Assembly: GCF_000204055.1 (NCBI RefSeq)
Contig: NW_006768805.1
Span: 77,307 to 141,306 of the forward strand
Direction: 5' to 3'
DNA: 64,000 nucleotides
DNA from: Melampsora larici-populina 98AG31
Lineage: Eukaryota; Basidiomycota; Pucciniomycetes; Pucciniales; Melampsoraceae
Shown here: one piece after another, positions 16,015-62,707 of the stretch
How the letters are laid out: each line of letters begins with the position of its first letter
Numbering within the stretch: position 1 is the stretch's first letter
Translations under genes and position numbers: made by a program
The notes under the pieces: generated by a model
Database searches by the model: none
What the model was told of the DNA's origin: nothing
The model's input: the letters and a program-made list of their open reading frames with translations, nothing else

Positions 16015-17338
16015 ATGTCCGATTATTTATCTCCAACTGCCTCCATTGATAGTTTGGATTCCATCCTCACGATCCGCACTGAAGATTTATTTGAATCCAA
16101 TAATAATGAAGACGCTCTCCGAGAACAAGGTGAGAATCACATCATTCTAGCTCGAGAACTCCTCGCCGCGGAGCTAGCCCCAAACGTTCCCTGCCGTACT
16201 TCTCGCCTCAGAGGTCACGAGTACGCTAAAGAGGTGTTTGAGGGTAGTCCGGTTCGATTCCACGAGGTCTGTCGCATGGACAAGACCACGTTCATCGCTC
16301 TGATGGATGTTCTAGATGAAAATCTCACCTCTTCGATTCACATCGATACACGAGAACAGGTCATGATGTTCTTATATACAATTGGGAATCATGCCTCAAA
16401 TCGAATGACCTCCGAGAGGTTCCAACATTCGAAAGAAACTACGAGCCGCTATTTTCATATTGTGGCACATGCATTAGAGCGCATCTCGGATAGATTTATC
16501 CGTCAGCCTGGTCCCCAAACTCCTTGTCCACCCGAAATCGCCACAAACTCCAAGCGCTATCCTTGGTTTGAGCACTGTATAGGTGCCATTGATGGCACCC
16601 ACATCGGGGCCGTTGTTCGAAACGACGAACGTGAACTTTACCGAAATAGGAAAGGGTTCTTGAGCCAGAACGTACTGGCTGGGTGTTCATTCAATTTGAT
16701 GTTCACCTTCGTTCTGGCTGGTTTCAAGGGATCTGCTGCCGATGCCAGAGTCTTGGAGGTGGCTCGGCAGCAGGGTAGATTCGTAGTACCTCCAGGTAAG
16801 TGAGGAAGATTCTTGCTCCATCTGATCTTATTCACATGCTGACCATTGTTTTTTTTCTTCTTTCTTTTCAAGGCCGATTCTACCTGGTTGATGCAGGTTA
16901 TGCAAATGAGCCGGGCTTTCTAGCCCCTTACCGTGGTGTTCGATATCACCTACGAGAGTGGGCCCAAGGAAACGCTGGGCCCAGAGACTACAAGGAGCTA
17001 TTCAATTTAAGGCATTCGAGTTTGAGAAATGCAATTGAACGGATTTTTGGGGTGATTAAAAAAGATTTGAGATGCTTACCAACATGCATTCATTCTCAAT
17101 TGAATTGCAGTCCACTTTAGTTATTGCAATGTGTGTATTGCATAATATTATAGTCAAGAAAGGCGGCGCCGATTTCTTTATGGACGATGATGAAGAAGAG
17201 CCTCAGAATTGGCCAAATGAAATTGATGCTTATAGAGTCGCATCCGCTGGTCTTCGTACACAAGCTGCCGACAATAGAGATCGGATGGCGATGTCTATGT
17301 GGGATGCTTACGTTGCTCACCCTCGCTATCAAGCTTAA
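16015..17338 (+). pseudogene. PIF/Harbinger transposase of element B, broken by a 1-base frameshift
   Basis: Exon 1 is 16015-16795 and exon 2 is 16873-17338, joined in phase (VVPPG/RFYLVDAGYANEPGFL). Conserved blocks: FHEVCRMDKTTFIALMDVL, CIGAIDGTHIGA (first Asp), GSAADARVLEVA (second Asp) and LRNAIERIFGVIKK (Glu). At the A6 run near 17058-17063 the frame is lost. The first frame stops after a nonsense tail, while the shifted frame continues the family sequence (RFEMLTNMHSFS, then LVIAMCVLHNIIVKKGGADFF) to the stop at 17338. The simplest explanation is loss of one A in the homopolymer. It may be a true inactivating mutation or a sequencing error. Without the shift the protein would be about 415 residues with a complete DDE triad. 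Confidence 0.8.
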
Positions 17339-17435
17339 TATCTTAGAATTAAAACACTATTTAAATCAACAAGTCTTTTTTATTTCATGTTTAAACCAGT
17401 AAGCAGGCTACAAAAGTGTATTTCATTCGGACAAA

Positions 17436-17524
17436 CACTACACCAAAGTGCATCTTTTCCCGGGGGTAAAGAAAAGTACTGCGCGCATAGAAAAGTATGG
17501 TTTCTCTACTTTTCTATACCCATA
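17436..17524 (+). repeat. Left 89-bp terminal inverted repeat of the giant CACTA element
   Basis: It contains CACTACACCAAAGTGC, a CCCGGGGG core, and an internal stem where ATAGAAAAGTA pairs with TACTTTTCTAT. The right copy matches with two substitutions. Confidence 0.95.
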
Positions 17525-18189
17525 CTCAATCCTCTGTACAGTATTTACATATTCTATACTTTCATATACTCTATACAAATAGTTTTGATATGCAGCCAAA
17601 CTCTTCCTCATCAGATGCTTTAGGGTGAATCTCTAGAGTGAGCAACCGTAAAGGCTGCACTCATGATGCAAATATATACACCAACCTTTTTTATAAGAGA
17701 CCAACGCTTTCACGGTGCCGTCACATATTACAATCTCCATCATATGTTCAATGAATCCTCACTGCACGCACCCCTATTTGCTATTTCCCCTTCCATCCCT
17801 TAAAAATGTCTTCTTGGTTATATCAGTTTATGCAATAGCGCTCTTTCGAATTGTTTTGTTCACATTCACAGATTGAGTTAATTCAATTCAAATGATCTTT
17901 TACTTTCTTGAGCTTTCTTGGATCTATGCCACCTCGAGATCGAAGTTCTCTCTGATCAGCGCCTGTGGCCGCCACAATCTCGGTGACAATTTCACTCATG
18001 AGCGGCATTTAGATACGACGTATGTGGATCTTCAAACAGCCGACTGTTGTACTAGGTTTTCTCATTTCTTCCCATCTAACGTGCTGTGACTATAAGGAGC
18101 TAAACTCCAGCGAATTAACGTTTCGTGTTTCATCTCCCCGTTTCCTTCAGAGCTTCCAGCGCAATAAAAATCAACTATCCACCGCCACG

Positions 18190-21100
18190 ATGCTTTCCCC
18201 AAAAAAGAAGAATCGACAGACTCGAAGGTATGTCTGTACCTGCCAAGTATACGAATGCGCTTCTGGTCGGTTCGTAGACGCCAACGGAATACAATGTCGC
18301 GGTGTTGAACTAAGTCCTGAGGCATTTGAAGCCCATCAACGTGCACAACTACGACATCAAGCCCAGGAGATTTCCACAAAGTCAAAGAAAACAACGCATC
18401 TCTCTCTATCTGCTTCTCAAACCGGTGCTGCAAGTGAGCAAGATCTGATATCGCAGCTTGAACAAGTTGTCCTCAGTCCGAATCAGGCCTCAAGATCATC
18501 TGATAGTACTAGTACACCCAGTGGTTTATCACGTAATGAATTCCCTATCTCAGAAAGGGCAAGACTTTTGGAATCACGAGCAGATGGTCTTGCATCAACT
18601 TCCGATCCACCCGCTGTACAGAACGACAATACCTCCGAAGACTGCCTTGCTATGATTCGAGCCCGGGAAGCTGGAATTCAACCTTATAGCTGTGGTTAGT
18701 CACTTCATAATCCTTCTTTAGATTTGTTAATCATAAAGTCCTAACTAACTCTATTGATATAGCCCGATTCTTTACCTTCAATCTGAAGCTTATTAATCCA
18801 TTACATCTGCATGTCGTTCTGGCGGCAGCTCTCATGAACGTATATAGCCACGTCTCCATGAAGGGTACTTCTTGGCTTCTGGACGTACAAAGAACCGATA
18901 TCGAGCTCTCGTTGACACATGGACTGAGGCCAACTTCGTCACCAGCTGAACTTCTCCCGTACGACAACGAAATTATACGTCGTCTCCCTCGGACAATCTC
19001 TACAGTTTTTGAATGGCTTCACATTGATCCTAGTCTCACCTACATGAATTGTTGTTCTTCATGCTTTGCTCTGTACCCGATTGAGAGCGCTCCACCTACA
19101 TGCAATCACCGACTTTCCAGCATTCCCGGTGGTCCACCCGAGACCATGGATCTTGACTCCGAGTCTTTTGCCACGCCACGCAATGAGTATACTCCGGATT
19201 TTACTGAGCGTCTCTGCGGTGAAGTTCTATTACGGTCTTCCAGGGGGCGTCAAAAACCTGTTCGACGTTATGCCTTCCAGAGTTTTCCGGACTGGATTGC
19301 CCGCTTTCTATCGCGTCCTGATGTAGAATCGTGGCTTGATGAATCTTTAGAAGAGTCTTCGAAGGACTTTACTGCTAACAATCCTATACAAGATATACAT
19401 CAATCCAAGATATGGAAGGATTTCCGCGGCCCAGATGGAGAACAATTTACATCTAAAAGTGGAAACCTTACCTTTGGAATGTTTGTCGACGGGATAAATC
19501 CGTTTGGAAACAAACAGAGCGGCCGACATGTATCAATCACTTTTATTGTATTGGTATGTCTTACACTGCCATTTCGAATGCGCTATCGACCGGAAAACCT
19601 ATTTTTAGTTGGCATTGTTCCGGGCCCACGCGAGCCATCTCTGGAACAAATGAACTGGGTGCTACGTCCAGTGGTTTCTCAGCTTCAAAGTCTATGGAAC
19701 CCTGGCTTGCTTCTGTCGCAAACTCACCAGCACAAGAATGGACGGCTCATTAGAGCTGCCTTGCTCCCTTTCCTGGCAGATATCCCTGCATTGCGACGAT
19801 CCCTTGGTTTTCCAAGCGCAACTGCAAGATATTTCTGCTCGATGTGTCTCTTGACCAAGGATCAAGCAAAAAACTTCGATCAGTCAACTTGGCCTTTACG
19901 ATCGACTTGTCAACACAAAATCTGGGCTTATCAAGCACGAGATGCTCAAACAGTGCAGGAGCGAGAACACATTTTCAAAACTCATGGGGTTCGCTACTCT
20001 GTTTTAGTAGATCTTGAGTATTGGGACGTTATTCACTTCCACGTAGTCGATTCAATGCATAACCTATTACTTGGCCTATGTGCCTGGCATTGTCGGAGAT
20101 TTTGGGCTATGAAAGAAACCGTAAATGAAGAAGACAATATGCCGACAATCAGTACTTCTGAATTATTGAACCTCCTTTCTGAGCATTCAAATCCTTCCCC
20201 AGCTGAACAGACACAAATAGATCCGGGTGTTGCATTAGAAAATGAAGATGATAACCGAAGTAATTTCTCGCTTCCAGACGATACAGATTCGAGTGATGAA
20301 GATTTCAGTCCTCTCGGTGAAGGTTGGAGTGGTAAATGGGAACCGCCACCAGTTGACCAGATAGTGTTTGATTCATCTATGCTGGCAGAAATCAATTCAT
20401 TGCTTCCGCGCATTAATATCCCAAGCTGGATCAAGCGTGCGATACCTGTTCTCGGCAAAGCATCATTTGGTAAATTGAAAGCCGATGAATGGCGAAACCT
20501 GTTCACCATTCAATTACCTCTGATACTGATCCCGATGTGGTATGGACATGATGAAGTCAAGAATTCACTTCTCAAGAACTTTTGTCACTTAGTGTCACTA
20601 GTTAATCTAGCACTCAAGCGAGTAATGACATCAGAAATAATCTCATCATACCGCCATCACATCCGCCAATACCTAGAGAGCTCGATTGTTCTCTTTGATC
20701 ACTGTCAACCAACATGCAACCATCATCTAGCAATGCATCTTGCCAACTGCCTTGCAAACTTTGGCCCAGTGCGCTCCTGGTGGTCGTTCCCTTTTGAAAG
20801 GTTGATGGGAGACATTCTCAAGTCTTGTCACAATAATCATCTGGGTGAGTCTATCCATCACACATTTTTTTACTTCTGCTGACTTTCCTTCTAAAAAACA
20901 AACGAGCAGGCGAACTTGAAATTACCTTCATGAAGAGTTTCAACCGTGCGGGCAATATTGCTTCAATACTCGAGAATGAAAATCTTCCTGAGGCTCTCAA
21001 GCCGTATGTTTCTCGGTTGAAGGCATTATATGAACCAGAAGAAAGCCTCGGACGACGTGTCTCAAACTCCAAGATGGAAATGATTGAACCTGAAATCTTG

Positions 21101-21493
21101 GATTTATTGACTACGCGCTTGAATTCACAAGCACAGGAAGATTGTACGTGGGTAACACCAGAAAAGTGGGCATCAATGTCCAAGCAAAGCTCTCTCGGAA
21201 TTGCCCCGGTGTCAGCTCGAGCTATGTTTTACAATCAAGTCAGGCACTTGGATGTGAAGTTCTCGACATTCAAGGAAAGCCGTAAGGATAGTTTTATCTT
21301 ATTTAAGTCATTACACAAAGGTCACCGCTGTTTTGGGCAGATTCAGAAGATATTGGTACATCGTCGAAATCCAGAACGAAACAAGAACATCAAGGACACA
21401 TGGCTACATGTACATTTGTTTCGTCAGCTATCTCCTAATCAATACAACCCTTTCGCCAAAATCAATGAACCAAATGTGCAAGTAGAGTTATGA
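18190..21493 (+). CDS. CACTA Tnp2-type transposase (Transposase_21-like), full length
   Basis: Three exons: 18190-18694, 18763-20844 and 20910-21493, all in phase, giving 1056 residues. The N-terminus has a Cys pair pattern (YVCTCQVYEC, then DANGIQCRGVELSPEAFEAHQ) as in other basidiomycete CACTA/KDZ-type transposases. The core shows GMFVDGINPFGN (first Asp), RPENLFLVGIVPGPREPSLEQ, LRPVVSQLQSLWNPG and YFCSMCLLTKDQ, the Tnp2 signature. HFHVVDSMHNLLLGL supplies a second Asp, and WWSFPFERLMGDILK is the likely catalytic Glu. No stop or frameshift was found. It should cut at the CACTA ends of the surrounding element. The ATG at 18190 follows an AT-rich subterminal zone and precedes a basic KKKNRQTRR stretch that may be a nuclear signal. 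Confidence 0.88.
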
Positions 21494-22406
21494 TTATGGG
21501 AAACGCCTGAAAGCGTACTCGTGAGGTTGGATGAAGTCATTGCACATTGTGCATGGATGATGTATAGTCCAGCTTCAATCCACAAGAGTTTAAAGGTTTC
21601 AACAGTGGCTCTTTTATCTATGGAGCGGTAACGAGACTTTTATGGCTCGTCTCATTTTCCTGTTTAGCTATTTGTGTATATATCGAAATTCAGCTTTGTA
21701 ATATCTTGGAGATGAAGCTGTTTGGATATGATATTCTTGTTTCTCTAGTGCTCTCATTTCCAAACCTGAAGTTGTAAGATCATCAACTAAACTTGTTGAT
21801 TTTAGCCTAGATGGATTCATATTTATGTTCTTCACTTTGTCCATTCTGTTTTCAATGTTGAATTGCCTGGGACGAAGTGAAGAGCCTCAAGTTTTTTCCG
21901 CGACATCACGAATTGTTTGATATTGTTCCAATTCAAACTACCCGTTTGCATATGTTGTTTGCGGATAAAAGACGTATGCAATTATTGATCGCCTTGGAAC
22001 TAAGTCCCCCAAAGACTTAAATGTGTCTTGATGTTGATACAGTTCATAACATTGTCAGAGAGCTTCAATAACACTCTCATCTAAGAAATCGATGCTGCCG
22101 TTCAAGTTGTGCAACTTTTGATCATAACAAAACCCTCACAAGTACCATATGGATCTCTACTAATTGGTCTATACATTCGAGCATAAGAGATGGATTTTGT
22201 CAATCTGGTGACCATTGTACACAAAATGAGCTTGTTGAACGACCCGTGAAACTTTCAAAACTCGTTTACAAGAAAGTGAGTTAGATACAAATGAAATTGA
22301 CTTGAGGCTTCAAATGTAAGCATACAAATTGATCCGAGTGTACACTAAAATCAGATTACGGATTAGAAAAAAAGGAATACCTCCAACGTCTTCATGATAT
22401 GCTATA
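21494..22406. other. Intergenic inside the CACTA element
   Basis: This is the region between the convergent transposase and the long - strand gene. No supported frame. Confidence 0.4.
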
Positions 22407-25400
22407 TCATTTGAGAGACTCGACAATTGGTAACTTTGACAGGATAGGTGTGCGATCAATTTCCAGCGCGGACTTCTCCAATGGGGTTAAAGTCGCAAGA
22501 TATTGTGATGAATAGCAGTCGATGGGAAGTCCAGAGGGTGCAGGATCTTCTGAGATTATTGGATTTGAGCATCGAATTCGAGGTCGTGAAGGGCGGCCGT
22601 TGTTTGGACTGCTAGAGTTTTCTGGGGGCGACTTTCTTGGCTTCAGATTACTATCGTCTATCCTAGCTTTGTACTCGTCCAAAAGGATTAAGGTATTGGT
22701 AAGTTCTACGCTACGCCACATCAACTTGTGGATGTGACATGTTGATTCATTGTTTTCGGTATTAACACAGGTTTCATGATCTGTCTCATCTTCACTACAA
22801 GCGGCTTGGAGAATGGTCGTAAGGGGCCACAATGGAGGTTTTGAGAGTACCACCCGCTCACGTAGCTTCTTCAACTGTTGAAGAGTTCATTCAGTCAGAT
22901 GAATTACATTGAAAGGGGTCTATGAAGTGTGATAGGACGTACATATCTGTGTCAAGCACGTCGCCGGACGGCACTGGCGGCACGCTTCCTTCGAGTCTCA
23001 TCCCACACTTGTTGCTTATGCCTGAAGGGAGTTGAAATTTCAGACATGAAGCATTGAGAGAAAAGTGGTGCCAATAATTGAGACAGAACATAGACGCACC
23101 CTTTTGTTAGAGATCGGACACGTGTAATCAAAGTTGTCCTGAGGACTGGTATGTTTTCTTCATCGAGTAACACCCCACTATATTCGTTGCACTCAGCTAG
23201 TTTGATGAAGATTCGAAATGCTAAATCCCACAGCCATTTGTTCTTGCTTGCATTTGGGGACTTGTCAAAGTCGGGACGGAAACTTGATACTCCAACGGCT
23301 TGCATCATGGTCCACATGACTGCCAGCTGCTGGGGTGTAGCTTTCGGATGTCCCGGTCCGTTGGTGTAAGGAAAATGGGGATCGGATGTAGTCGAAGCCT
23401 GTCCTGAGGGCACCAGACAAGGATCAAGCGTGTCAAGGTTAGTATCAAACTTCCATGCCTGCCTATCAGCTTCAGTTGCCGCAGCAGGTAAGCCGCCCTC
23501 GCTCGGCCTACGCCCCAAAAGAGTGTCGATATGATGTCGCATCCATGACTACATGGCTCACGTCAGCTAGTTATATCCCCTCGGATTTGAATCGAAGACT
23601 CACTGCACATCTTCCTCCACGGATTTTTTTGGGGGGTGGCGGGCTTGGTTTTACATCAGTAAGGGTGTTCACAACCTGCGAAAGAACCTTCAGTTCTTGG
23701 ACGACAAGGTCAAGTCGGTGGTTTGTTTCGTCTAGTGAGTGTTTGACTTGATCTGATGGTTTCATGCGCAAAGATCAGTACTCGACTGAGGTAGGCTAAT
23801 CTCAACGCACCAAATACTAGGACTTACAAAATTTGGTTCGCCATTCGGGGTCGTTGTTGGATTTCTCGCTAGGAATCGAGTCACGAGCAGGGGAGTCGTC
23901 GAAATCAGGAGCAGAGCTCATTGCGGCTGGTGAAGATGGCATGTGTGTACAGGGTGGTGTGGATGCGCGGCGTCTGTCTTGTCGTTTTCTAGTAGGCTGG
24001 GGTCCAGGAGATTGATTGTCCTCATCTGATTGAATCATGAGTTCATCAGAAAAACTACTTGTACGACTATTGTTGTCTTCATTCAGAGACGAGTCATCAT
24101 CTGATACGTCCATTTGCTTTTGTATTTTGGGGCGTGGCCGAAGCGTGGGGGTAAGGTGTTTGCAAGTCCGACGGGATTTGCGAGTGGAGGTCGAGGAAGG
24201 TTCAGATAATTCCTGCTGCTCCAAACTTGCAAGATCGGTCTGAGCTGTGTCTTCTTCAGGGGCGGGTTCTGCTGATGTACCAACTTTGCGGTGTGAATAT
24301 GCATCAGCACCCTGCAACACTTATGTAAACACGCAGAAACACTCACCTGACTCCGCTGTTTTTTCCTGCTGAATCGATTCTGGTAAGATAAAAGGTACGA
24401 ATTAGTTTAAAATTTCTCAAGGATGTAAAATACAAAGATGAAGGAACACACTTGTTTGTGATTTTGGTTGCGGCACCTCAAATGAAACATGAGGAGAGAT
24501 TTCTCGACTTTTCCCCTTCCTTGCTCCTTTTCGGATTGCCGCTTTTAATTGAAGTTCTGGTGTCAGCTGCTACCCTTGCCGTTGTAATGCAGGATTTCTC
24601 AACACATAGCGCTTACATTTAAGTGGGTTCGTGTCTTGCACACTCGTAGACGTGTTTGGTGGGGGAAGATCAGATGTGCTGGTATCCTTCTTTTGTTTAC
24701 CTTTTCGCTTGTTCTGCTTGGGATGTATCAGCTGGGATTTGGGGTGGTTCAAGACTTGTTCAGGCGATGTTGAACGTTGATCAGGAGTTTCCGCGGGTTG
24801 TATACGTGCTGGTTCATCTGGGCCAAGAAGATTGCAGTTAGTTCCAAGTAGAATTCGACATTCAATTCAGTATCGTGATCTAGGTGATTACCTTTTTGGC
24901 TACCGAGAACCTCACTTGATTGACTTGCAGGTTGTAAAGATTGGATGGCGTTATGAGATTCTGGAATAATCATAAGAACAAGTTTGAAATGTCAGTCCGT
25001 GTTGCTCTGATGATGAAAAGAGTCCCAAACCTTCGAGCGTCGGAGGCGATTGAGATCGTGGTTTTGGAAGTGTGAATCGAAACAAATGCCTGGGGATGAC
25101 GACTGCCCAAATTATATCATGCTGTCAGCTAGGAACTCGTGTATTGATTCAAGAAAAAACGTACTTAGATCCCAATACTCGTCACACATGGCCACAAGTG
25201 TATCCTTATCAAGACCTCGGCCATTCAAGCCAACATGTTCAATCATATTTATCAATTCTGATGTCTCATGAAGATTGAAATCATGATTCGGCGATGCTGG
25301 TGGATCGTTGTGAACTACTGAAGCCTCCTGAGTATCGGAAATTTGGGCCAGGGAACTTGCATCTTGAGTGCTTTTGCTGGTCTTGTTCGAGTTCAGCTTG

Positions 25401-25853
25401 GACCGAGTGTTGTGACCCGAAGGAATCCTGGAGGCTGAGGGGTCTACCCTAGGCTTTTTAGTTTTTGTGTATTTGTCAAGGAGCTCGATCAATCGGACAC
25501 AACTCGTCTTTGGTCCAACCGGGACACCGACGTCGTCTAGACGCTGGGATATGTCTTGTTCCAGCCCAAGTTGCTGCGCTCCTTATATCAATGGAAGGAT
25601 TGTATAATCCAAAATAGTTTAGACGCAACATAAAAAAACGGGAAGGAAGATTGGATGAAGACAGGGAACATGTCTTACCGGTATCTGAACCTGCAGATGG
25701 ATTTTTACGCTTCCTGGATGTTTTAGACCCTGTGGCGACGATATCTTGTAATGTAGAGTCTTCGGAAAGTGGTTGTGGATCTGATGTAGCTGATTTCTGA
25801 CCTTTACATTGGCCTCGCAAGACTCGAGAGGAAGGGATTGATCCTGAAGACAT
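22407..25853 (-). CDS. CACTA cargo gene 1: long basic/acidic protein with SEDETDHE motif
   Basis: Multi-exon - strand gene beginning at ATG 25853 (MSSGSIPSSRVLRG). Exons I can join in phase are 25853-25679, 25536-25165, 25090-25031, 24960-24892 and 24817-24617. Later exons lie near 24520-24340, 24320-23826, 23760-23590, 23545-22950 and 22870-22407, with boundaries unresolved. The first half is Ser/Lys/Pro-rich and probably disordered. A coiled segment (NHRLDLVVQELKVLSQVVNTL) follows, then a conserved-looking domain (WKFDTNLDTLDP, KNKWLWDLAFRIFIKLAE), a basic helix (ETRRKRAASAVRRRA), then CSEDETDHET and WRSVELTNTLILLDEYK. The last part follows a pattern I recall from many basidiomycete proteins of unknown function (Arg-rich helix, then SSDESDHE-like, then WRS..(V/L)...L..LD). 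A TnpA-like DNA-binding accessory role is inferred only from position. Confidence 0.55.
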
Positions 25854-27177
25854 TGCAAATCTAAGACAAAGATCTAAATAATGAATAATTGGGAGCTGTT
25901 TGATCACTTAAATGGAGAATCAGATAGTCCGGATTGTGAGCTTGATAAAACAACAAAAGGATGCTGTGATCAAACTACATACATATCTATTTCTTCATTG
26001 GATTGTGTTCGCGCAGTTCATTCAAACTATTGAGATACATGCGGTGACAAATAAAAGATACTGATCATCATCAGCTCACCTCAAATGATTACAAAGGTTT
26101 ACCAAGGCAATGATCTGGGGCCGTATGAATGAATCCTACTCCTCAAATTTCTTTCATTTTACTGACAACTCAGCAGAAACAAATGCATACCTCTCAAAGA
26201 AACTAATAGGTTGACATGGTGATCCCCGTGCTTATGTTCTATAGTGAATCGCCGCTCAGCATTCTCTTACTTACATAATTAGGAGGACAACAAAAAAGCA
26301 AGATGATAAAAATGGGCAAACCACGTTGATGTGTCAGTCACAATAAATTCAAGTGATACCCCTCAGAAAAATCAAAAGGTTGGCATGAAGATTCCCGTGT
26401 ATACTATCCACCTTTTTCTATAGTGAATGGCCCCTCGGCATTTTCCTAGTTACAATTATATAATTGGGACAAACAAAAACAAAGACCTTTTATTTTACCC
26501 CCACTTGCTTATAATTCGATGACTGTTACGACACCAGCTAAGATTGACGTGTATACCGTGTATTTGGAGTCAAGTATACAGTATACAAAATGTCATCCAG
26601 ACAACATATCAGTTGCATCTTCTTCAGTCTTGAGTTATCTTCGTTATATTGAACGAGATCAACCAAGAAGCAGAGACCTTCACTGCTTGGCCGCCTTTGT
26701 TTACTTGGATGAGCCTGTTTGTGATTGACATATCTCGCTCTCATCTCACTCTCCTTCAAAACCGGAGTCTTGGTGCATCAACCTCTGTGCTTAAATAGAC
26801 TACTGACCCAGCCACCCTTTAAGCATCACCTCCAGCGATTTCTGTCTCATGGTCCCATTAATCTTGATCAACAATTTGTACTTTACCGTTGTATAAGTAC
26901 CTTTGATTTTCAAAGGTACAATCATAATCTTGATTTGTGAATAAGCCACCAATTGACTGTGTTTTTCTGCTTCTAGCTCCAGTTACGTCTGATCTATCAC
27001 AAAGTCTCTGTTCTCTTCAATCAAATAACTCTTCTTATAATTCAAAGGTACGCACTATCTGATGTCAAACTCTTGATTCTATGTTGAGATAATCTCATCA
27101 GGTTTTTCCTTAGGACCCTTGTCGATTCCGCTTTGGATCTTTTTCATTCAACTTACATACAATCAGTCCGCCTGATC
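25854..27177. other. Intergenic inside the CACTA element, with a diverged duplication
   Basis: No supported gene. It lies between two divergent genes (starts at 25853 - and 27178 +) and likely holds both promoters. A ~110-bp segment at 26195-26300 is repeated at 26361-26480. Confidence 0.45.
26195..26480. repeat. Diverged direct repeat of ~110 bp
   Basis: Both copies share AGGTTG(A/G)CATG, then CCCGTG, then CTATAGTGAAT(C/G)GCC(G/C)CTC(A/G)GCATT and TA(C)ATAATT/TATAATTGGGA...ACAA. They start near 26195 and 26361, spaced about 165 bp. The purpose is unknown; a subterminal or promoter repeat is possible. Confidence 0.6.
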
Positions 27178-28068
27178 ATGACCAAGTCGAAGAAGGGTAA
27201 GGGCGCCAAAACCGCTAGTCAACCAAACTCTGCTACCGAGGCCAATCCGGAACATGCAACTATATCGCCTTCAGCTCCGCCTGGAAGACCTTCAACAAGC
27301 GCGCCGACGAAAGAGGAACCAGGAACAGCACCAGGAGGGCCAACATTGCGTTCACCATTGGCGTTCCTTCCTTCATTCAATGCTTTTCAAGCCATGCCGC
27401 CGGAATCCACAACTGCCAACTGGATGAAAGTTCAAACTTTAGATGACGATCTCAAGGTCTTTCTACAACCAAACATAACCAAATCCTCAAAGGGCATCAC
27501 TAGCCTTAAGCTTTATCGCATCTTGGTTCACTTCAACCCCAAAACTTCTTCGCGACCCAGTAATCTCAAAGATCTTCTCTGGAGCAAATATGTCACGGAT
27601 GTTGCTCCCCTCCTGAAGCCTCACATTTTGCCTGAACCTGCTGCCTCCATGGAAACCAAATCATCATCTCACGACTTTGATCCTCTCAGCCGCAAGACCA
27701 CTCGCAAACAGCTCACCGAGGCCGTACATTCAGTCAACCGCCAATTTGTCATTCCATCCAATTCTCCGCGTGATTGCTTATTAGTCTTATATAAGGTATT
27801 TGTTGACAAAGATTTGTTCCTCCCCTGGCTCACCGATTTTATCAAGTCTCCCAAGGTTGTTCAACCAGAAAGGGTTCATACATTATCTATGGAGGAGCTT
27901 CGTATGACTTTGCAAGAACAAGCACCGCATGTATTTATACACTTGGGTCCAATGACCTTAAGTGTTCTCATCAATATTTACATCAAGTTTGTCTGTGATG
28001 AACCAGTGGGTGATGACGTGCTTGTGAAAGGGTTTCACTACTCCCTCTTTCGTCAACATGAGGAGTGA
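27178..28068 (+). CDS. CACTA cargo gene 2: unknown 296-aa protein
   Basis: Single open frame from ATG 27178 (MTKSKKGKGAKTASQ). A basic start is followed by a Pro/Thr/Ala-rich linker to about residue 75, then a compact domain: LDDDLKVFLQPNITKSSKGI, SLKLYRILVHFNPKTSSRPS, DLLWSKYVTDVAPLL, DCLLVLYKVFVDKDLFLPWL and LGPMTLSVLINIYIKFVCDEP. I do not recognise a family. The SLKLYRILVHFNP...LLWSKY segment has the spacing of a two-helix SAP-like module and resembles a segment of cargo gene 3 (SEIREILVSFYPHF...ALLISIFKKM), which hints at common ancestry or a shared DNA-binding role; this is weak. It lies divergent from cargo gene 1. Confidence 0.55.
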   Translation: MTKSKKGKGAKTASQPNSATEANPEHATISPSAPPGRPSTSAPTKEEPGTAPGGPTLRSPLAFLPSFNAFQAMPPESTTANWMKVQTLDDDLKVFLQPNITKSSKGITSLKLYRILVHFNPKTSSRPSNLKDLLWSKYVTDVAPLLKPHILPEPAASMETKSSSHDFDPLSRKTTRKQLTEAVHSVNRQFVIPSNSPRDCLLVLYKVFVDKDLFLPWLTDFIKSPKVVQPERVHTLSMEELRMTLQEQAPHVFIHLGPMTLSVLINIYIKFVCDEPVGDDVLVKGFHYSLFRQHEE

Positions 28069-28860
28069 TATCCTGATATACTATTGGTAAGTTGATTTTC
28101 GTGATGGTTTGACAATCATTTCCGATGTTGATCCTAACTTTCTCACCGCCTCACCCCCTTTTAGTGACAGTATCAAGCCTCGACCAAGACTGGATCTTTT
28201 GGAAACTGTCTACAAATTGCTTACCGTCTAAGAATATTTCCCATCTTGCTTGTCTCCTCAGCATTCATGTTGGGTCTTTTATGCTGTGGTCTATTTTTTT
28301 GTATCGTCACTCAATTTGATTGTACTTCTTCAATGTTGTGGTCTCATCTTTGTGTCACCCGTCTTCAAAATGTCGCTGCTTGCTTAAATAGAGATCAACA
28401 GCGATCACAGATGAGTTCGTCTTCAAAAGAGGAGCTATACAGCTTCATCCCAGACGGGATATAGCATTATCATCATATACCTATGTGCTCACAATCATAC
28501 CAACAGCAGAGTTTCATCACACATGTAAAAATATTTATACAACTTCATCTTGGGCAACACGATGTAGCATGATAATTACACAATCATGATAATAAAAACC
28601 ACCCCCTTTTAAAATACTTGATCAAGTTAGATACGCTCGTGTGATACATGCACTTTGCAGCAGAAGTCTATAGCAAATTCAATAGCAATATATTCTCTAC
28701 GACCAACATGAATGAATATCACATGTTAAACCTGTATCAGGATGGGTTGGAACTCGACTGTTCTTAGAAAAACAGCAAGAATCATGTTATCAGACCGTAT
28801 CTAAGAGGAATTTCAGAGTCAAAACTGACCTGAGATAGATTGAGATGACGTCTTGTCAAT
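28069..28860. other. Intergenic inside the CACTA element
   Basis: No supported gene; it lies between the convergent cargo genes 2 and 3. Confidence 0.4.
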
Positions 28861-30290
28861 TCAACAAGCTTCCAGAAGTGTTTTGTCTCCTTCTTCATCA
28901 CCTTTCAATAAAGGGCTTATATTTGAATCTTCAGCAATATCCGATACACTTTCAGCAAACGGGGCCCTAACATTATCAATCGTTATTGAATGACCAAATC
29001 AGAAATGAGTAACTCGATGCATGGTAGCAACTTCGATGTACCACACAAAACTCTCTGAGCTTACCTGTGGTACTCCAGCAAAGCCGAGATAAGCCCAGTC
29101 TCTCGAATAATTTGATGGAAAGTCGCCTTACGTGAATTCAAGGTTGCGAGTTTTATTTCAAGGGAATTTGCGAGTTCTTCATGTTGTATTGGGAAGAGTT
29201 CAGCCTGATTCAAAAGGAGATAGGTTACTTCGACTGCCTTGTGAGCATCTTCGAGCAATGATACAATCTTATGAAGTGCCACTAGAGAATCTTCATAAGC
29301 ATTGGCAATATCAGATACATTGTTGTCCACAGCCACTCGAGATTCTCCATCAGCCGCATGGATTTTGGAGTCGTGAGGTTCGTGATCGACTCCACCTTGA
29401 TCAACGTGTTTCAATGAAGGACTAAGTGTATCTGCGGGAAAGTCCCATCGATATTTGACATACAAGTTCCTGAATATTACAAAGCGTGACTTTAACATCA
29501 GTGTCATAGTCCAATAATCAGATACCACATAATCAGAGACTTTACAAGACCAAACTTACTCGTGATGCTCCACCAAAGCAGAAACCAAACCGGCTTGTTC
29601 AACATTTCTATCAAACATTATCTGACGTGACTTTAATTTTATCATGGCACCTCTGAGCTCGTGTTCCAATCGGTCGTGTTGTTTTGACGATAGATTGACC
29701 TCACGTAACAGAAGCTGGATCCCCTCGATGGACTCATGAGTCTCTTGAAGGTAAGAGGTGCTATCATGGAGGGCGTCTCGAGCAGTTTCGCGAAATGACT
29801 TGATGTGATCGATTTCCTGTTCATTGAGGTGTTTGTAGCTTCGGATGAACACCATGAGGCTCTCCGCCACTAGACGATAGTTCCCATTTTCAAGGTTCAA
29901 GAGACCGTGCAGGCTGAACATGTCTTTGCGATCAGAGTAGATATCAGATTCCGAAGAGATGAGGAATGCTCGAGCGGCCCGTGGCGGAAGCTCTAAAGGA
30001 GCTTTAAAGTGACTTGGAGGAGAGTTGTAACTGGGGATGACCACGTAAGATAGACGTTTTGCAACCATCTTTTTAAATATACTTATGAGGAGTGCGCGTT
30101 CGTCTTTTGCAGTTTCATCAAAATCAAAATGAGGATAGAACGAAACAAGGATTTCTCGGATTTCAGAAGTAGTGGCTTTCTTTATAATAAGTTCAGGATC
30201 GATCCGAGGGGTACCAGATCCAACCCCAACATACTGCAGAATCGAAATTGGTAGGAACACACAGTTAGTTTGAAAATCGGTGGACATCAT
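28861..30290 (-). CDS. CACTA cargo gene 3: 413-aa protein with duplicated helical exons
   Basis: Three exons in phase: 30290-29560, 29469-29065 and 28966-28861 (stop TGA). I do not recognise the family. The N-terminus has DPELIIKKATTSEIREILVSFYP, a possible SAP-like two-helix unit. The rest is mostly helical. The end of exon 1 (LQETHESIEGIQLLL...RQIMFDRNVEQAGLVSALVEHHE) and the end of exon 2 (LLEDAHKAVEVTYLLLNQ...KATFHQIIRETGLISALLEYHR) are clearly homologous and both finish at the same splice phase, so an exon has been duplicated in tandem. The protein starts with two Met codons (30290, 30287). Function unknown; a multimerising accessory protein is possible. Confidence 0.6.
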
Positions 30291-30881
30291 GATTATCGTA
30301 AAAGTGATTGAAGGGAATGATCAAAGTTAAATTTTGCCCAGAAGCTTTGTGACGCACACTTTGATTTGCAGATGAATGTAAGGTCTGATCGAATTGTACA
30401 TAGAATTAGAAGCTTCTCCGATTTACCCTACATCTTTTTCCTTGTAACAATCTGACCAAGATATATTGGTGAAGATTGAGGAGTGTGTGGGGCATATTTA
30501 TCTTCATCACAAAACATCAAAGCACGTTCATGTCTCAGTGCTAACACCCCTCATTATTCATCAATGCAATCAAGCCAGAAGTACTCTATAACGTACTTGT
30601 GATAATCTTGTAAGCAAATTCTATGTTCATCATTTCTCTTTCCATGACCATGATCATACTGTAAAAGTTGTGTCAAGCAATTCAAAATGAAACAAACACT
30701 TACAAACTTCCGATGGATCTTCCAATTCAGGAAATATCCATTGGTCAACTGGGCAGTTTGTCTCCACCTCCATTTGATTCTGTCTGATCCACTCGTACAA
30801 TATCATCTCATATATGTACTCTCTTAAATGTTACAGCGTAATAAGCCGACCAATTTAATAAACAAGTGAATTCGTCATAAC

Positions 30882-31466
30882 ATGAAGGTCACGCCGCCGC
30901 GACTCCTTCGAGGATCATTTCACAAGTCATCATCCTCATTCTTTACAAATCCTCTTCACAATAGCCTTTCAAATCAAGAATCACCTTGCATTCAAATACT
31001 TACACAGCTTCATAGACCCGCTATCTTCTACAAAACCATTTCATTTGATTTTTCTATCCTTTTATCTGTCATAACTCAACTTTGGCTTTACCTTTGGCCT
31101 TGTTGTCTACTTTGGCCACGATTTCCACGGTCTTGCGCTCCCCTTCAAAGGCCATATAGCCAAATGTGTACGTCTATATCTTTCTATTCCTTACCTAGAA
31201 CTCTCGTGGGTGAAGCTAACCATCATGCGGTTACTAGCGATCAGGCTTCACAGGCTTCACAGGCTTCACAAGATTCACAAGATTCACAAGATTCACCGGC
31301 TTCATAAGATTCACCGGCTTCACCGGCTTCAAACTATAGGGAGGATTCAAACCTTGCAAGCAAACCAAATCCCTCCATATCACCGGCCCCCGAACTTCCC
31401 AACCTCTGTCCTTCCACCATCAAGGGACGCAAGCGGACCACTGGTTCTCAATCCGTTCAAACTTGA
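30882..31466 (+). pseudogene. CACTA cargo ORF 4 with SQA/SQD repeats, interrupted by one in-frame stop
   Basis: The frame opens at ATG 30882 and reaches a TAA at 31305-31307 inside a 9-bp repeat array (SQASQASQASQDSQDSQDSPAS). Beyond the TAA the same frame continues for 52 codons with the same repeat (DSPASPASNYREDSN...TIKGRKRTTGSQS) to a TGA at 31464-31466. The TAA stands where the neighbouring units have CAA or CAG, so a single substitution probably made it. The upstream part has a hydrophobic segment (FDFSILLSVITQLWLYLWP). It may be a decayed gene, a read-through case, or a chance frame. Confidence 0.35.
31242..31330. repeat. 9-bp minisatellite (CAGGCTTCA / AAGATTCAC units)
   Basis: About ten consecutive 9-bp units alternate among CAGGCTTCA, CAAGATTCA and CCGGCTTCA. 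They encode SQA, SQD and SPA triplets in the frame from 30882. Confidence 0.85.
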
Positions 31467-31559
31467 AGGTGTGTTGAAGTTTAACACTTACACATACATT
31501 TGAAATTGTATTGACATTTTTAATTCTTATAGTTACCTTTTCTGAAATATGTGTTGCAT

Positions 31560-32060
31560 TTTTGGTATTTGGAATCCTCTCCGCCTTATTTGGGATCAAT
31601 GAATAAGTCCCTCTGGTGCTGTGATGTCTCATCAATCTTATAATCTTATAGTCTGACCTATATGAAAGTTATACACAATCAATGTCATCATTATTTTGAA
31701 TCCTCTCTCTCTTAATCAAAATCAATGAAGAAGTCCACTTAGTGGTGTGTAGTGTATGCGACCAATTACCTTCTGTAGTTTGGTCTATGTCAAAGTCTTT
31801 TACAAACAATTATCAACTATTCAGATTATTCTCGGAACTCTCTCAATCAATTTTTTGAATCATCTCTCTTATATGGAATACACAAATAAGTAGATCCAGT
31901 GCACCCTTGCCGGTTTTGGTATCTTAAGTATCCTATACACAAGTTTTTTTTGGAATTCTCTTGATCTTGTTTGGAATTTTGAATAAGTTGGTCATCTGGT
32001 GCCGTGTAGTTTTTGTTATCTCACCTTATGTAGTTTGGTCTAAATCAAGATTTGTTATCC
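31560..32060. repeat. Four degenerate tandem copies of a ~95-160 bp unit
   Basis: Related segments start near 31568, 31697, 31856 and 31951. Each has GGAAT(C/T)CTCT..., then (A)ATGAATAAGT, then a GGTG(C/T) GTG(T)AG stretch. Three also share TAGTTTGGTCTA(TA/AA)TCAA(A)G or a close variant. They are too diverged to be recent and have no coding capacity. Confidence 0.55.
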
Positions 32061-32512
32061 ATGATTATAAAGCAATCAAAATTAATTTCTTTGCTATGTA
32101 ACAATGTCAACCTTTGAGATTCATCGCATAGGCATCACTTCTTGGTATCCTAATACCATCACAGGTAAGATTTTTCTTTCGTCAGCAGCTTTGGTCAGAC
32201 ACACTTGAGATATAGTGCCTTTAAAAATGGTGGCTATATACTAGCCAAATTTGAAAACTCCCATATTTTCAACTTTGATAAGAGAGCACAACGATTTCCT
32301 GATTTATCTGCATCCTACAAGGGTTGAGTAACAAAATAAAATCAAAGTAGATCTAATAGCTACGGTACGATTGAGCTACAGTACTTGTGATATAAAATGG
32401 ATATGACATGCTCATGATGAAGTACAATTTATTTGACAAATAAATTGAAAGTATCAAACTGATGGAGTTGTTAGATCGAAACACTTGGTTTTGATTGAGC
32501 ATTCATAAATGC

Positions 32513-32922
32513 TCAATGGGAAGGTTCATCAGTGGATTCAAATTCGTATTCGTATTGAAAATCTACATCTTCAGGCGCTACAAACCGCCGGATCAGTCTC
32601 TCGTGCGTCTTGATACGGTGATTAGCCAAATCTAACTTTTCCTGCATATCCATTGCTTCCACTTCCAAATCCTCAACCCTAAGTTGCAACAGGCGGATAT
32701 CTCTGGTGGCTCGATGCATGAGAGACTTCACCTGTATCATGGTGCTTGCTGAACAAAAACAAGATAAAAGTCAGAGGGACCCTGGTAGGAGTCACTGATT
32801 CCGAAAGTATGCGCACCATTGACCTGTTGTATCTCTTGTATCTGTTTGAAGAGTTCGATGCCTGCTTTCTTCCCGATTGTGGCTGATGGGGTGTTCAATT
32901 CAGCCAATTGTTCCTCAAACAT
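32513..32922 (-). CDS. CACTA cargo gene 5: short coiled-coil protein, paralogue of cargo gene 6
   Basis: Two exons in phase: about 32922-32817 (5' limit uncertain; ATG at 32922) and 32748-32513. The predicted protein reads MFEEQLAELNTPSATIGKKAGIELF, then MIQVKSLMHRATRDIRLLQLRVEDLEVEAMDMQEKL, then NHRIKTHERLIRRFVAPED and an acidic end. The coil plus THERLI motif matches the C-terminus of the gene at 34243-36057 (QEIQTHERCIIQLMEHD), so the two are probably a duplicate pair and this one is shortened. Function unknown. Confidence 0.5.
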
Positions 32923-34242
32923 TTGTGCTGAAATATGAGGTCGAGTTTGATTTAACTGGCTGCTACCTACCAAAGGCACCAGAAGAGAAATTTGCAGTAC
33001 TGACCTTTATTCTTTCGCACATTTTCCTTCTCTCCGCTTACGCCCACATCAGACACCTTTGAGACTGAATGACTCCCTTGGATATCTTGAAACATGACAA
33101 AGATACGTCAGGAGAATTTCACACGAGAGAAGACGAACTATTAACCTTGTGGAACAACGCCAAGCACTTTACAATGAGCAAATTGAGAAAGATTTGGAGC
33201 CTCGGGTACATCAACCGGGGGATAGTGATTGGTTATTTCTCGAAGACTCTGCTGGGACATGATTACATTCAAATGCGGAAGAATAGGAATTGCTTTTGAA
33301 GACTCTGGCTAAGTCAAATACAGAGACAAAGATAAATCAGCCTCTTTCCGATTTCAAAAAAGATTTATCGGAGCTATACTTGGAAAGAAAGACCAAACCA
33401 CACGATGATGTTTTTGAGGCTGATTCTCAGAACTCTTCAGGGATAGAGTCCACGAGTGTTGAGGTTATATACTAATTATAATAATGATGCGTGAAGGGAG
33501 AATTTGGTGGAGTTTCCTGTAGTGGGGATCACATTTGTCTTATTGAGTTCAATCAAATCGAATTTATTGCTTCAAATCTCATGACTCAATCTCTGAGAGT
33601 TCAGAATCACAAATGATGCGAAGGGCTAAGAGTCGAACGTTTTCTAATTCATCCCAGTGACAATGCAATAGGCTGCAGTATTTGTCACGTAGCAATTAGA
33701 AAACACCGGTGTTAGAAAACCTGATTTCTATGGATATTACGCGGGTTTTCTAATCTTACATGATTAGTTGAGTATATATTGAAGATATGCAACTCACCTC
33801 ACAGTGATTGACATATATAAATAGGTATTTTGATTCTCTTAATTAAGGAGCTCTCAATAACAAAGAGGGCAGAATGTAAGTGGATCGACATATACGTGAA
33901 GAGGGATTTCATCCAAGTCGTTCTGATGTGCCATTTTGTATAGAGCTCTTTGTATATAAATAATAAAGAGATCGTTTGATCATCCCAGAAAAGTGCAATC
34001 ATCCTGCTTTGATGAATTACCTAATGACTACTACATGTCGCAAATTAAACAAAAAGATTGTGCTTGATAGAACACTGAATAGTTGTAACAAGTCATCCAT
34101 AATATAAAGTATACATTGTACCACATGTCACCAGGACAGTAAGATCATGAATGAAGCCAATCAAATTTAAAGCAGATTTAAATGAAAATTGTAAAAACTG
34201 TCATACACAACAATATCTTGAAATAAACTGGTCGCTGATTAA
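32923..34242. other. Intergenic inside the CACTA element
   Basis: Short + strand frames at 33069-33299 and 33290-33475 have no recognisable motif and no clear splice join. I do not call a gene. Confidence 0.35.
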
Positions 34243-36057
34243 TTAATCACTATCATCAGCTGCAGATTCATTGTTCATCACTTCTGTGTCCGATTCCTTG
34301 TTATTGTTGTCGTGTTCCATCAGCTGTATGATGCACCGCTCATGTGTTTGAATTTCTTGTTCTGCTGTTTCGCACTGCTGATGGAGGAGGTCCAGTTGTT
34401 TCTTCAAGTTTGTAACTGAGTCTTTGAGGGTGTTGATAGTCATTTCTTGCTTTTCAACGCGATTGGTGTTTACTTCAAGCGAGTGGCCTGTAAACACAAG
34501 GATAGACATAAATCAGAGACCTTTCCATTCTTACGTGAGATGCAATTTACCTAATTCATACTGGTCCTTTTCATGCTGCACAATGTAAGCATTTGACTGT
34601 TTCTCAATGGCATTGATACGAATCAAGATCTTGGAGACTGATTCTTCAAGGATATGTACTGCTCAAAAGCACGGGTCAGTAACTTTCGCAGGTCTTATTG
34701 AAGGAATACTGACCTTTTTCGACTTGAAGTCTTTCCTCCAAGAATATATCTACTCCCGACTTGTAGATTGAAGTCGATGACGAGTGTGATGGGGCTTTTT
34801 GCTGGATTTCTGATCACACAAAACAAGGTTTTCAGTAAGAAATACACGTCACAAAAGGATTGATAGACCACTGACCTAAATCGTCAACGGAAAGCAAATC
34901 CACGTCTGAGAAATCAATGAGATCATCCATCTTGGACACCTCAGGAGGGATGATATTGTGTTTTTCGGGGTCAGGTGAGCTGGAAACTTTCACACTGGGA
35001 TTTGTTGATCCATCAATAGGTGCAACTTTGTAATTTTGCAGTGCTTTGAGATCTCGCTTTTCATCTCTCTCCATTAAATTTATACCCGGCTCTTGTATTC
35101 TTAGTGCTGGTTTACGTAGGGCCAAATGCGAAGATTTTCCTGGTTCAAGAAAAGGAAACTTCTTCGATATTTGCTGCTGCTCAACATGTTTATATAAAAA
35201 TCACAAAAATCAATAGATAGAGACACTGACAGATGGATAAAGTACATTACCTTCTTTTCTTTTTTATTTTTGGATAGGCTGGGAATTTCATGGACTGATA
35301 CATCATTGCCTAATAAAGAGTTGACACGGCCCAGGGTGGAGAATTGATCTTATGAGCCAGATCTCAATGATCAGCATCTGTGATTTGTCTTATGTATGAA
35401 ACTCACCCAAGTTAGTGCGCTTAGTAGGTTTTGTACTTGAGGTGGGGGAAGCATCCCGCTTTCGTTGCGCCTTTACTTGCAAAGCACCCGTTCGGGACGG
35501 AATTGGCGGAACTATGATATTCAGTGAAGATTAGCGTGCTGATCTGTGAGAGAATATGATTGGAGTGTTTTGAAAAGCAACAATTCACTTACTATCTATA
35601 GCTTGAGCTGGTCCGTCTGAACCACTGATTCCCTGAAAATTCAATGCTCGGCTGCTTGTTGGATCCGGGAATACTTTACCTCCACAGCATTCATTTCTCA
35701 TAAGCCATAGCAACAAAAACCTAAAAAACATGTGGAAAACCTTACACTCAGGCTGTTTTTTCCGCATTATCACTTCCACTTCGCCTTTTTTGAGGCCTGA
35801 CGAGACTGGTGATTTGGGATAGTTGATTCGTAGCCAATCCAGCATGACTTGTTTTGTCACGCCTGGTGCACTTGGGTCCATCACGTCTGGCGCACTACAG
35901 TCCAATAAATCTGAAGGAAAATGCGGAATACACAATAGAGAGGCCATGAGTAAAACAACCAAAAATGTACAATCAAGCTCAAGAGACACAAACCACTTGG
36001 ATCCGAAAGCTTTTGTTTGGTAGCGGTGTGAAAACAGAGCGTCGTAAAACTCAGCTG
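34243..36057 (-). CDS. CACTA cargo gene 6: SAP-like and coiled-coil protein (5' end unresolved)
   Basis: Multi-exon - strand gene. Blocks in order: AEFYDALFSHRYQTKAFGSKW (near 36050-35990); a segment VTKQVMLDWLRINYPKSPVS then GLKKGEVEVIMRKKQPE (35900-35760) with the spacing of a SAP DNA-binding motif; ISGSDGPAQAID (near 35600); a basic Ser/Thr/Lys stretch VPPIPSRTGALQVKAQRKRD (35500-35410); NDVSVHEIPSLSKNKKEKK (35310-35250); an acidic patch DDLIDFSDVDLLSVDDL (near 34900); then a coiled coil with QEIQTHERCIIQLMEHD and an acidic end (34509-34243). Exon joins near 35600-35310 keep phase; others are approximate. A DNA-binding, multimerising accessory protein of the CACTA element is a reasonable inference, not a demonstration. 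Confidence 0.45.
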
Positions 36058-37091
36058 TCAAAGATGAAAGTATGTGAATACAAATCGTGGTCAGCAACTA
36101 AAGGCTTTCAATCATCTTGATGGAGTTGAATCTACAAACGTTTCATTAGAGAGACTAGCGTACGCACCTTTACGATATATAGATATCAAAGATATGAATT
36201 TGAAGCTGGAGATGATAGATCCCAAGGTAAAAGTCGGACGACACAAATCACAATCATAATATATGTAAGAGAGTGTGGTCCGAGAGATTATAAGATCGAT
36301 GTTTGACTCACAGGTAAGAGAAAATTGAATCACAAAGAAGAAATTGAAATCGTCACGGAAAACTGCAAGGTTGGCAGATATCAGTTCATATAATCGAACT
36401 TACAGTCTTGTTATGCCGGGTTTGTAATACTATAAGTTTGTGAATTGATGAGATGGTCCCTCGGCAAAGAAAAGAAGGTTGTATCAGCAGGGAACCATGG
36501 TGATTAATGAAGTTCTTTTGCAAGTAAGTTCTTGGAGAACTATCACGATGACTGTTAGAGAAGATGCAACGATTAGTAAATCGGTACGTCTGTCAGCGGA
36601 GCACAGCTGACACATCACAAAACAAAGCAGAATGACCGTGTTCAGGATGATACAAGTCAATGTTGTCCAGTGAGCTAGTCAGTAGCCTTTAAATACGTTC
36701 TGTCTGATGACAGTGATAACTCCAATTAAATACGCAGGAAACAGTCGTTGTGAGTATAGAAAAGTGTTGTGAGGATATTTGTACAACATACACATGAAAA
36801 AAAAGAATATGTGGGGGATGGGTGCGTGCTAAGTTTAGAGGATGGGCAAGAGGCTGTGTATTTGTATGTCATACATATTACATACCAACGGGCGGCTGGC
36901 TTTCGTAAAGCACATGAGGCTCAATGAGGTTAAATTATTAATCAATTGTATAATACATTGCTTTTGGAGAAGTGTACAGCAATTGGAAAGTGTTACAAAT
37001 TGAGAGTGTGATACCATAAGAGCACAATCTTAGTACATGTCAAGGCCCTCAATTCCTGGTTGATACACAGAAAGCTGAAAAGGAAGTGCTT
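36058..37091. other. Right subterminal region of the CACTA element
   Basis: AT-rich, with no supported gene. It may contain the promoter and first exon of cargo gene 6. Confidence 0.35.
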
Positions 37092-37180
37092 TATGGGTAT
37101 AGAAAAGTGGAGAACCCATACTTTTCTATGCGCGCAGTACTTTTCTTTACCCCCGGGAAAAGATGCACTTTGGTGTAGTG
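37092..37180 (-). repeat. Right 89-bp terminal inverted repeat of the giant CACTA element
   Basis: Inverse of 17436-17524 with two mismatches in the stem loop. It ends ...TGGTGTAGTG, followed by AAA. Confidence 0.95.
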
Positions 37181-37357
37181 AAAGTATCTAAAAAACATGT
37201 ATTTCATTTGGACAAAGTATCTAAAAAATAAAAGAATAGCATAGCATAGCATATTATAGTGATGTAAAACAAAACCATAAGATTGTAAATTGTTAAAGTA
37301 ATGTAAAACAAAATTTGGATTTGATGATAAGAAAAACTATCATTGAAAAGAAAACTA

Positions 37358-39572: not shown

Positions 39573-39657
39573 TTAGCTCACTGGCACTCAACTTTTAACA
39601 ACTGGTCATGGCATTTTCAAATGTTCTGGCAAAGATGATTAGCCTTGAAAGATTATA

Positions 39658-62061: not shown

Positions 62062-62192
62062 CACTACACCAAATGTCATCTTTACCGGGCGGTAAAGAAA
62101 ACTACTGACATAGAAAAGTCCTGAGGCAACAGGAAGAGAGCTAAAAATCTGAAAAAATATGCACCTTGTTCCTAGATGTTGGGGCATCATGA
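62062..62192 (+). repeat. Left 131-bp terminal inverted repeat of the small CACTA element
   Basis: It contains the stem CTTTACCG-GG-CGGTAAAG and runs to ...GGGGCATCATGA. The right copy at 63728-63858 differs only at one base near the tip (ACACC versus ACACA). Confidence 0.93.
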
Positions 62193-62687: not shown

Positions 62688-62707
62688 GGCCGGCCCCGGG
62701 GCCGGCC
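62688..62707. repeat. 20-bp perfect GC palindrome inside the small CACTA element
   Basis: GGCCGGCCCCGGGGCCGGCC reads the same on both strands and is far more GC-rich than its surroundings. Confidence 0.85.

What the first reader, a model, noticed from the sequence alone, without database searches (positions are those of the whole stretch)
17436..37180. Giant multigene CACTA transposon with near-perfect termini
Seen: 89-bp inverted termini with two mismatches, AAA duplications, an uninterrupted 1056-codon Tnp2 transposase, and about 15 kb of other genes on both strands with no recognisable host homologue. Known: most CACTA elements carry a TNP2-like transposase and one TNPA-like gene. Five or six further genes is unusual. 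Inferred: these genes may form an accessory module (DNA binding, multimerisation, regulation or host interaction) that travels with the transposase.
Basis: partly seen in the sequence, partly recalled or inferred. Interest (0 to 1): 0.9.

Follow-up and report, generated by a model that had tools for sequence, protein, structure and literature searches.

The report
Multigene CACTA transposon in poplar rust
A 19.7-kb jumping gene in the poplar rust fungus carries its cutting enzyme plus about five companion genes of unknown function, and relatives of these genes turn up together between matching ends at many other places in the genome, so the companions appear to belong to the jumping element rather than being picked up by accident.

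Summary
In detail: 89-bp TIRs (98%), an AAA duplication, and a Tnp2 gene of 1056 codons once two introns are removed. Within 25 kb of 63 Tnp2 matches lie homologues of gene A (60), B (58), D (44) and C (28); random placement gives means of 3.7-5.5. Of 16 TIR pairs of 10 kb or more with at most 1 mismatch, A, B and D are each in 15, C in 13, a scored Tnp2 in 13, E in 4. Perfect 3-bp duplications flank 9 of 11 examined. Tnp2 and B show purifying selection (median dN/dS 0.10 and 0.26), though 32 of 63 Tnp2 matches hold in-frame stops. Gene order varies, and B disagrees with Tnp2 in some elements, suggesting exchange. No accessory protein passes a Pfam cut-off, and no TET/JBP gene was found. Best reading: a CACTA lineage with a conserved multi-gene accessory set. 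Its biochemical roles are inferred.

The parts
17433..17435 (.). left copy of 3-bp target site duplication AAA
17436..17524 (+). left terminal inverted repeat (CACTACACC...), with two direct and one inverted copy of AGAAAAGTA
18190..18694 (+). Tnp2 transposase, exon 1 (one of four in-frame splice choices)
18763..20844 (+). Tnp2 transposase, exon 2 (Transposase_21; conserved D260, D357, C376xxC379 in the numbering of ORF 18711)
20910..21493 (+). Tnp2 transposase, exon 3
22955..23548 (-). accessory gene A, conserved core exon; convergent with Tnp2
   Evidence: 89 matches in own genome; within 25 kb of 60 of 63 Tnp2 matches
23820..25907 (-). ORFs upstream of the A core, possibly its fast-evolving 5' exons (exon structure not determined; inference)
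   Evidence: ORF 25479-25907 matches only the sister element on C71 besides itself
27178..28065 (+). accessory gene B (296 aa); helical in the model
   Evidence: 86 matches; near 58 of 63 Tnp2 matches; median dN/dS 0.26; model
29559..30290 (-). accessory gene C, first unit
   Evidence: 70 matches; part of MELLADRAFT_91265
29064..29555 (-). C', paralogous second unit, joined to C in the public gene model MELLADRAFT_91265
   Evidence: 33% self-match; P0022
32516..33006 (-). accessory gene E (searched ORF 32516-32770; coiled-coil-like by eye; extent to 33006 is inference)
   Evidence: 22 matches, 19 of 22 within 25 kb of Tnp2, A or B
35588..36097 (-). accessory gene D, 5' exon; last gene before the right TIR, reading inward
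   Evidence: 63 matches; in 15 of 16 TIR pairs
34835..35200 (-). possible middle exon of gene D
   Evidence: ORF between the two recurring exons; inference
34246..34512 (-). gene D, probable 3' exon (coiled-coil-like by eye)
   Evidence: 14 matches; a D match 1.1-2.0 kb away in 13 of 14
37092..37180 (-). right terminal inverted repeat
37181..37183 (.). right copy of target site duplication AAA

Best explanation
It is a complete-looking CACTA (EnSpm) DNA transposon of a lineage diversified in this Melampsora genome that encodes a DDE-type Tnp2 transposase plus five accessory genes (A-E). Shown: the termini, the 3-bp duplication, the transposase, recurrence of the gene set between other TIR pairs, purifying selection on Tnp2 and B. 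Inferred: Tnp2 cuts at the TIRs; some accessory proteins bind the AGAAAAGTA-type repeats in the TIRs and, through helical or coiled-coil parts, bring the ends of a 14-20-kb element together or control its expression, doing jointly what TNPA does in plant elements. Elements appear to have exchanged accessory genes, and short non-autonomous relatives use the same type of ends.
For: Termini and TSD. Tnp2. Co-occurrence: A 60, B 58, D 44, C 28 of 63 Tnp2 matches (two of the 63 are pieces of one gene on C12); means of 200 random placements 5.5, 5.2, 4.0, 3.7. 16 TIR pairs of 10 kb or more: A 15, B 15, D 15, C 13, T 13, E 4. TSDs perfect in 8 of 10 fetched pairs and the window, and in 4 of 4 short 1.39-kb elements. 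dN/dS: Tnp2 median 0.105 and B 0.26 (16 of 435 pairs each in the dS range used); C 0.17-0.41 in 9 of 10 pairs, the tenth without finite dS. T and B identities co-vary, r=0.90 over 15 elements, maximum of 2000 permutations 0.63. Two or three AGAAAAGTA copies lie in each TIR.
Against: C is near only 28 of 63 Tnp2 matches and E in 4 of 16 pairs, so not every gene can be essential. 32 of 63 Tnp2 matches contain in-frame stops, so many copies are decayed. One TIR pair (C93) holds D but no scored T, A, B or C. No match over cut-off in Pfam for A-E, none in PDB sequences for A or B, no confident fold match for B. A's model is poor (pLDDT 53.5). Absence of GAAAAGTA from the 18.7-kb body is near chance expectation. 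No transcript data were available. Two of 11 pairs lack a perfect TSD. A, D and E were not tested for selection.
Confidence: 0.8

Rival explanations
1. The extra genes are captured host genes (passive cargo), as in Pack-type CACTA elements.
For: CACTA elements of plants are known to carry host gene fragments (recalled). B identity does not follow Tnp2 in some elements.
Against: Most homologues sit beside one another: 73 of 86 B matches and 53 of 63 D matches are within 25 kb of an A match. The families recur at mostly 30-60% identity, with purifying selection on B.
Confidence: 0.05
2. The 20-kb interval is a nest of several younger elements, and the genes belong to different transposons.
For: Another CACTA-type element and other inverted-repeat elements lie in the window; copies on C2 (38 kb) and C88 (28 kb) are enlarged, possibly by insertions.
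Against: No matching second pair of CACTA ends and no inner inverted repeat over 25 nt inside 17436-37180; the same genes lie between TIRs of 14-17-kb elements elsewhere.
Confidence: 0.04
3. The accessory genes mainly serve regulation or escape from silencing rather than cutting and joining: Tnp2 and A form the machine, and B-E are modulators gained and exchanged between elements.
For: Tnp2-A is the most constant convergent pair, and A identity tracks Tnp2 identity best (r 0.69 for A, 0.42 for B, 0.29 for D). B, C and E vary in place or presence. A short TIR pair C28:845705-848865 (3.2 kb) holds, of the genes searched, only C.
Against: B is almost as constant as A (58 against 60 of 63) and D is in 15 of 16 TIR pairs. 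No chromatin-type domain passed a cut-off in the scanned ORFs and no TET/JBP match reached its cut-off.
Confidence: 0.3

Closest known systems
Plant CACTA elements Spm/En, Tam1 and soybean Tgmt* (passages of PMC2613891)
   Same: CACTA termini, 3-bp TSD (given there for Tgmt*), tnp2-type transposase, comparable size (Tam1 17 kb, Tgmt* 20.5 kb), a second protein required with TNPD in Spm/En
   Different: There the second protein comes by splicing of the same unit and binds subterminal repeats; Tgmt* has 13-bp TIRs. Here there are five further genes on both strands, 89-bp TIRs, and no match over cut-off to any Pfam family for them
TET-positive EnSpm families of Puccinia (Kojima 2025, PMC12730594; passages, sections 15 and 23)
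   Same: Rust EnSpm elements with CAC..GTG ends and 3-bp TSDs carrying an extra gene; that paper infers gene transfer between transposons
   Different: The extra gene there is a TET/JBP dioxygenase; none was found here and the extra genes are unrelated unknowns
SmTRC1 of Schistosoma and its animal and fungal relatives (passages of PMC1636069)
   Same: Transposase_21 domain; poorly conserved extra proteins
   Different: Alternative transcripts of one unit; the passages seen describe no recurring set of separate genes

Membership tests
CACTA/EnSpm superfamily | TIRs beginning CACTA | tested here: met
   CACTAC at both ends
CACTA/EnSpm superfamily | 3-bp target site duplication | tested here: met
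   AAA in the window; 8 of 10 related pairs perfect
CACTA/EnSpm superfamily | tnp2-type transposase (Transposase_21) | tested here: met
   E=5.5e-16
CACTA/EnSpm superfamily | acidic triad with C(2)C and H(3-4)H between second D and last E (as stated in PMC12730594) | tested here: inconclusive
   D260, D357 and C376xxC379 conserved in at least 95% of 30 copies; E484 and E491 are both candidates; conserved H444, H450, H460 do not show the exact H(3-4)H spacing
Plant-type CACTA with TNPA | TNPA-like protein that binds subterminal repeats | not testable with these tools
   No Pfam match over cut-off for A-E; binding needs an assay
TET-positive EnSpm of Puccinia | TET/JBP dioxygenase gene in the element | tested here: not met
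   two places genome-wide, both under the cut-off (C4:2506454, C6:742570), neither in the window
Dileera (KDZ) | 8-bp TSD (value given for Zisupton-1_PGr in PMC12730594) | tested here: not met
   3-bp AAA here
Starship | tyrosine-recombinase captain gene (recalled) | tested here: not met
   19 ORFs scanned with Pfam (17 of them inside the element) gave no such family; a tnp2 transposase is present instead

The most novel reading that the evidence does not exclude
A eukaryotic cut-and-paste transposon whose transposition complex is built from five or six element-encoded proteins (Tnp2 plus A-E), with the genes exchanged between co-resident elements like cassettes: a modular multi-subunit transposase system that diversified into dozens of lineages inside one rust genome.
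Probability: 0.35. Interest if true: 0.82.

Novelty: new variant of a known kind. Interest (0 to 1): 0.64.

Why it matters
Spm/En, the best-studied CACTA element, needs two proteins (PMC2613891 passages), and extra sequence in large CACTA elements is often read as captured host DNA (recalled). Here a recurring set of unknown gene families, at least one of them under purifying selection, marks a large lineage of multigene CACTA elements. It offers dozens of natural variants for asking which proteins such a transposase needs. It also warns that some orphan genes annotated in Melampsora (for example MELLADRAFT_91265) are transposon genes.

Tried and rejected

SAP-like domain idea for B, C and D: by eye only. 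Pfam on single units gave nothing. Profile comparison of the three B units and the C unit gave at best 44% probability. Dropped as a claim. Gene C profile against PDB sequences: weak matches to LAGLIDADG endonucleases (best E 0.018, residues 103-178), treated as chance. Coiled-coil character of E and the D 3' exon: by eye plus weak matches under the Pfam cut-offs; no coiled-coil program was run.

TET/JBP content, as in Puccinia EnSpm: not found. Nested-insertion rival: no inner pair. Literature searches: (open-licence PMC only; listings seen; passages of PMC12210899, PMC12730594, PMC1636069 and PMC2613891 read, plus sections 15 and 23 of PMC12730594). Repbase was not searchable and may list related families.

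Rows dropped and limits: two C28 pairs of 10 kb or more (5 and 8 TIR mismatches) were left out of the 16; only pairs up to 45 kb with exact matches to one pattern were seen, so other elements (such as the one on C71) are missed. L092 (in-frame stop) was left out. In one search only pairs with dS between 0.03 and 1.0 were counted (16 of 435 for each gene). The Tnp2 search scored 62 of 332 first-look candidates, so Tnp2 is undercounted. The random-placement control drew positions only up to the last match of contigs that hold matches.

Full report
What is there. The window is G000:C41:77307-141306 in a 98.3-Mb assembly. Four contig lengths (C71, C62, C41, C30) equal those given for Melampsora larici-populina 98AG31 proteins. 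The element spans 17436-37180 (19,745 bp). Its TIRs are 89 nt at 98%, and AAA lies outside each end. The flanks suggest insertion into a short tandem repeat: TGTATTTCATTCGGACAAA lies left; AAAGTATCTAAAAAA and then TGTATTTCATTTGGACAAAGTATCTAAAAAA lie right (flanks printed, read by eye), so the neighbouring unit shows what the uninterrupted site probably looked like.

Transposase. Three ORFs join through GT..AG introns of 68 and 65 bp to 1056 codons; four in-frame choices exist for intron 1, giving 1055-1064 codons. Exon 2 matches Transposase_21. Across 30 fetched copies, D260, D357 and C376xxC379 are at least 95% conserved. The own-genome search gave 63 matches, with 62 of 332 candidates scored, down to 51% identity; 31 of the 63 have no in-frame stop and 32 have (counted).

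Accessory genes. Recurring ORFs: A core 89 matches, B 86, C 70, D 5' exon 63, D 3' exon 14, E 22. One further ORF (25479-25907) matched only the sister element on C71 besides itself. Of 63 Tnp2 matches, 60 have A, 58 B, 44 D and 28 C within 25 kb; 200 random placements gave means of 5.5, 5.2, 4.0 and 3.7. Anchored the other way, 61 of 89 A, 62 of 86 B, 33 of 70 C and 43 of 63 D matches lie within 25 kb of a scored Tnp2. The 3' exon of D lies 1.1-2.0 kb from a D match in 13 of 14 cases.

Between termini. A TIR pattern gave 79 places and none for the reversed control. Pairing up to 45 kb gave 18 pairs of 10 kb or more, 16 of them with at most one mismatch in 25 bases. Of these 16, A, B and D are each in 15, C and scored Tnp2 each in 13, E in 4; ten hold Tnp2, A, B, C and D together. 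In the 12 pairs that hold both Tnp2 and D, D lies within 1.3 kb of the TIR far from Tnp2, reading inward, in 9; C15, C32 and C33 differ. Pair C93 holds only D. Eight of 10 fetched pairs have a perfect 3-bp TSD; C4 (AAA/ATA) and C190 do not. The sister element on C71, with ends near 53343 and 74400, encloses Tnp2, A, B, D and E but no C match.

Order and exchange. Orders include B>T>A<C<D< (C1, C9), T>A<B>C>D< (C4, C12), T>A<B>C<D< (window) and C<B>T>A<D< (C30). T and B identities co-vary over 15 elements (r 0.90), with exceptions: C12, C122, C4, C15 and C88 have Tnp2 74-75% identical to the window's yet B only 37-43%, while C62 and C41:383317 have Tnp2 60% and B 57-61%. Identity to the window tracks Tnp2 best for A (r 0.69), less for B (0.42) and D (0.29). 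Module exchange explains this; ancient duplicate B genes with differential loss, or unequal rates, would too.

Selection. dN/dS is 0.08-0.12 for Tnp2 and 0.13-0.34 for B (16 of 435 pairs each), and 0.17-0.41 for C in 9 of 10 pairs, 8 of these at dS above 1. A, D and E were not tested.

Function. No match over a Pfam cut-off for A-E. The model of B is helical and has no confident relative. The TIRs carry AGAAAAGTA twice in direct orientation, and once inverted on the left; the core GAAAAGTA is absent from the 18.7-kb body, but fewer than one copy is expected there by chance. By analogy with TNPA I infer that one or more accessory proteins bind such sites and aid synapsis or regulation; this is not shown.

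Non-autonomous relatives. Four 1.39-kb elements with TIRs 83-84% identical to the window's all have 3-bp TSDs. A 1.8-kb CACTA-type element lies in this same window at about 62062-63858.

Novelty. Rust EnSpm elements with an added TET gene were reported in 2025 (PMC12730594; passages and sections 15 and 23). A 2025 survey of rust transposons mentions CACTA once, at superfamily level, in the passages seen (PMC12210899). The listings showed no title or abstract describing this gene set; most of those papers were not opened, and Repbase could not be searched. I rate it a new variant of a known kind.

Noticed in passing
window 62062-63858: A 1.8-kb CACTA-type non-autonomous element (139-nt arms, 98%; CACTACACCAAATGTCATCTTTACC end) with an apparent TTA duplication, in the same window.
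   Followed up: partly
window 39656-40566: A 911-bp element with inverted arms of 74 nt (100%) plus 79 nt (92%), starting TACTACCTTTGC; another MITE-like type.
   Followed up: no
window 16800-17117: PIF/Harbinger-type DDE_Tnp_4 transposase fragment just left of the insertion (E 1.7e-7).
   Followed up: no
G000:C28:845705-848865: A 3.2-kb pair of identical CACTA ends that encloses, of the genes searched, only a gene C homologue; a deletion derivative or a C-only element.
   Followed up: no
G000:C4:2502847-2506693: A gene C homologue lies about 3 kb from one of the two weak TET/JBP-like places of the genome.
   Followed up: no
window 29064-30290: Public gene model MELLADRAFT_91265 (P0022) joins C and its paralogous unit C' into one 404-aa protein; P0023 on the C30-length contig looks alike.
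   Followed up: partly
window 38758-39129: Tandem-like repeats of GAAGAATCTGAGCGAAGAGTTTGA-type units just right of the element.
   Followed up: no
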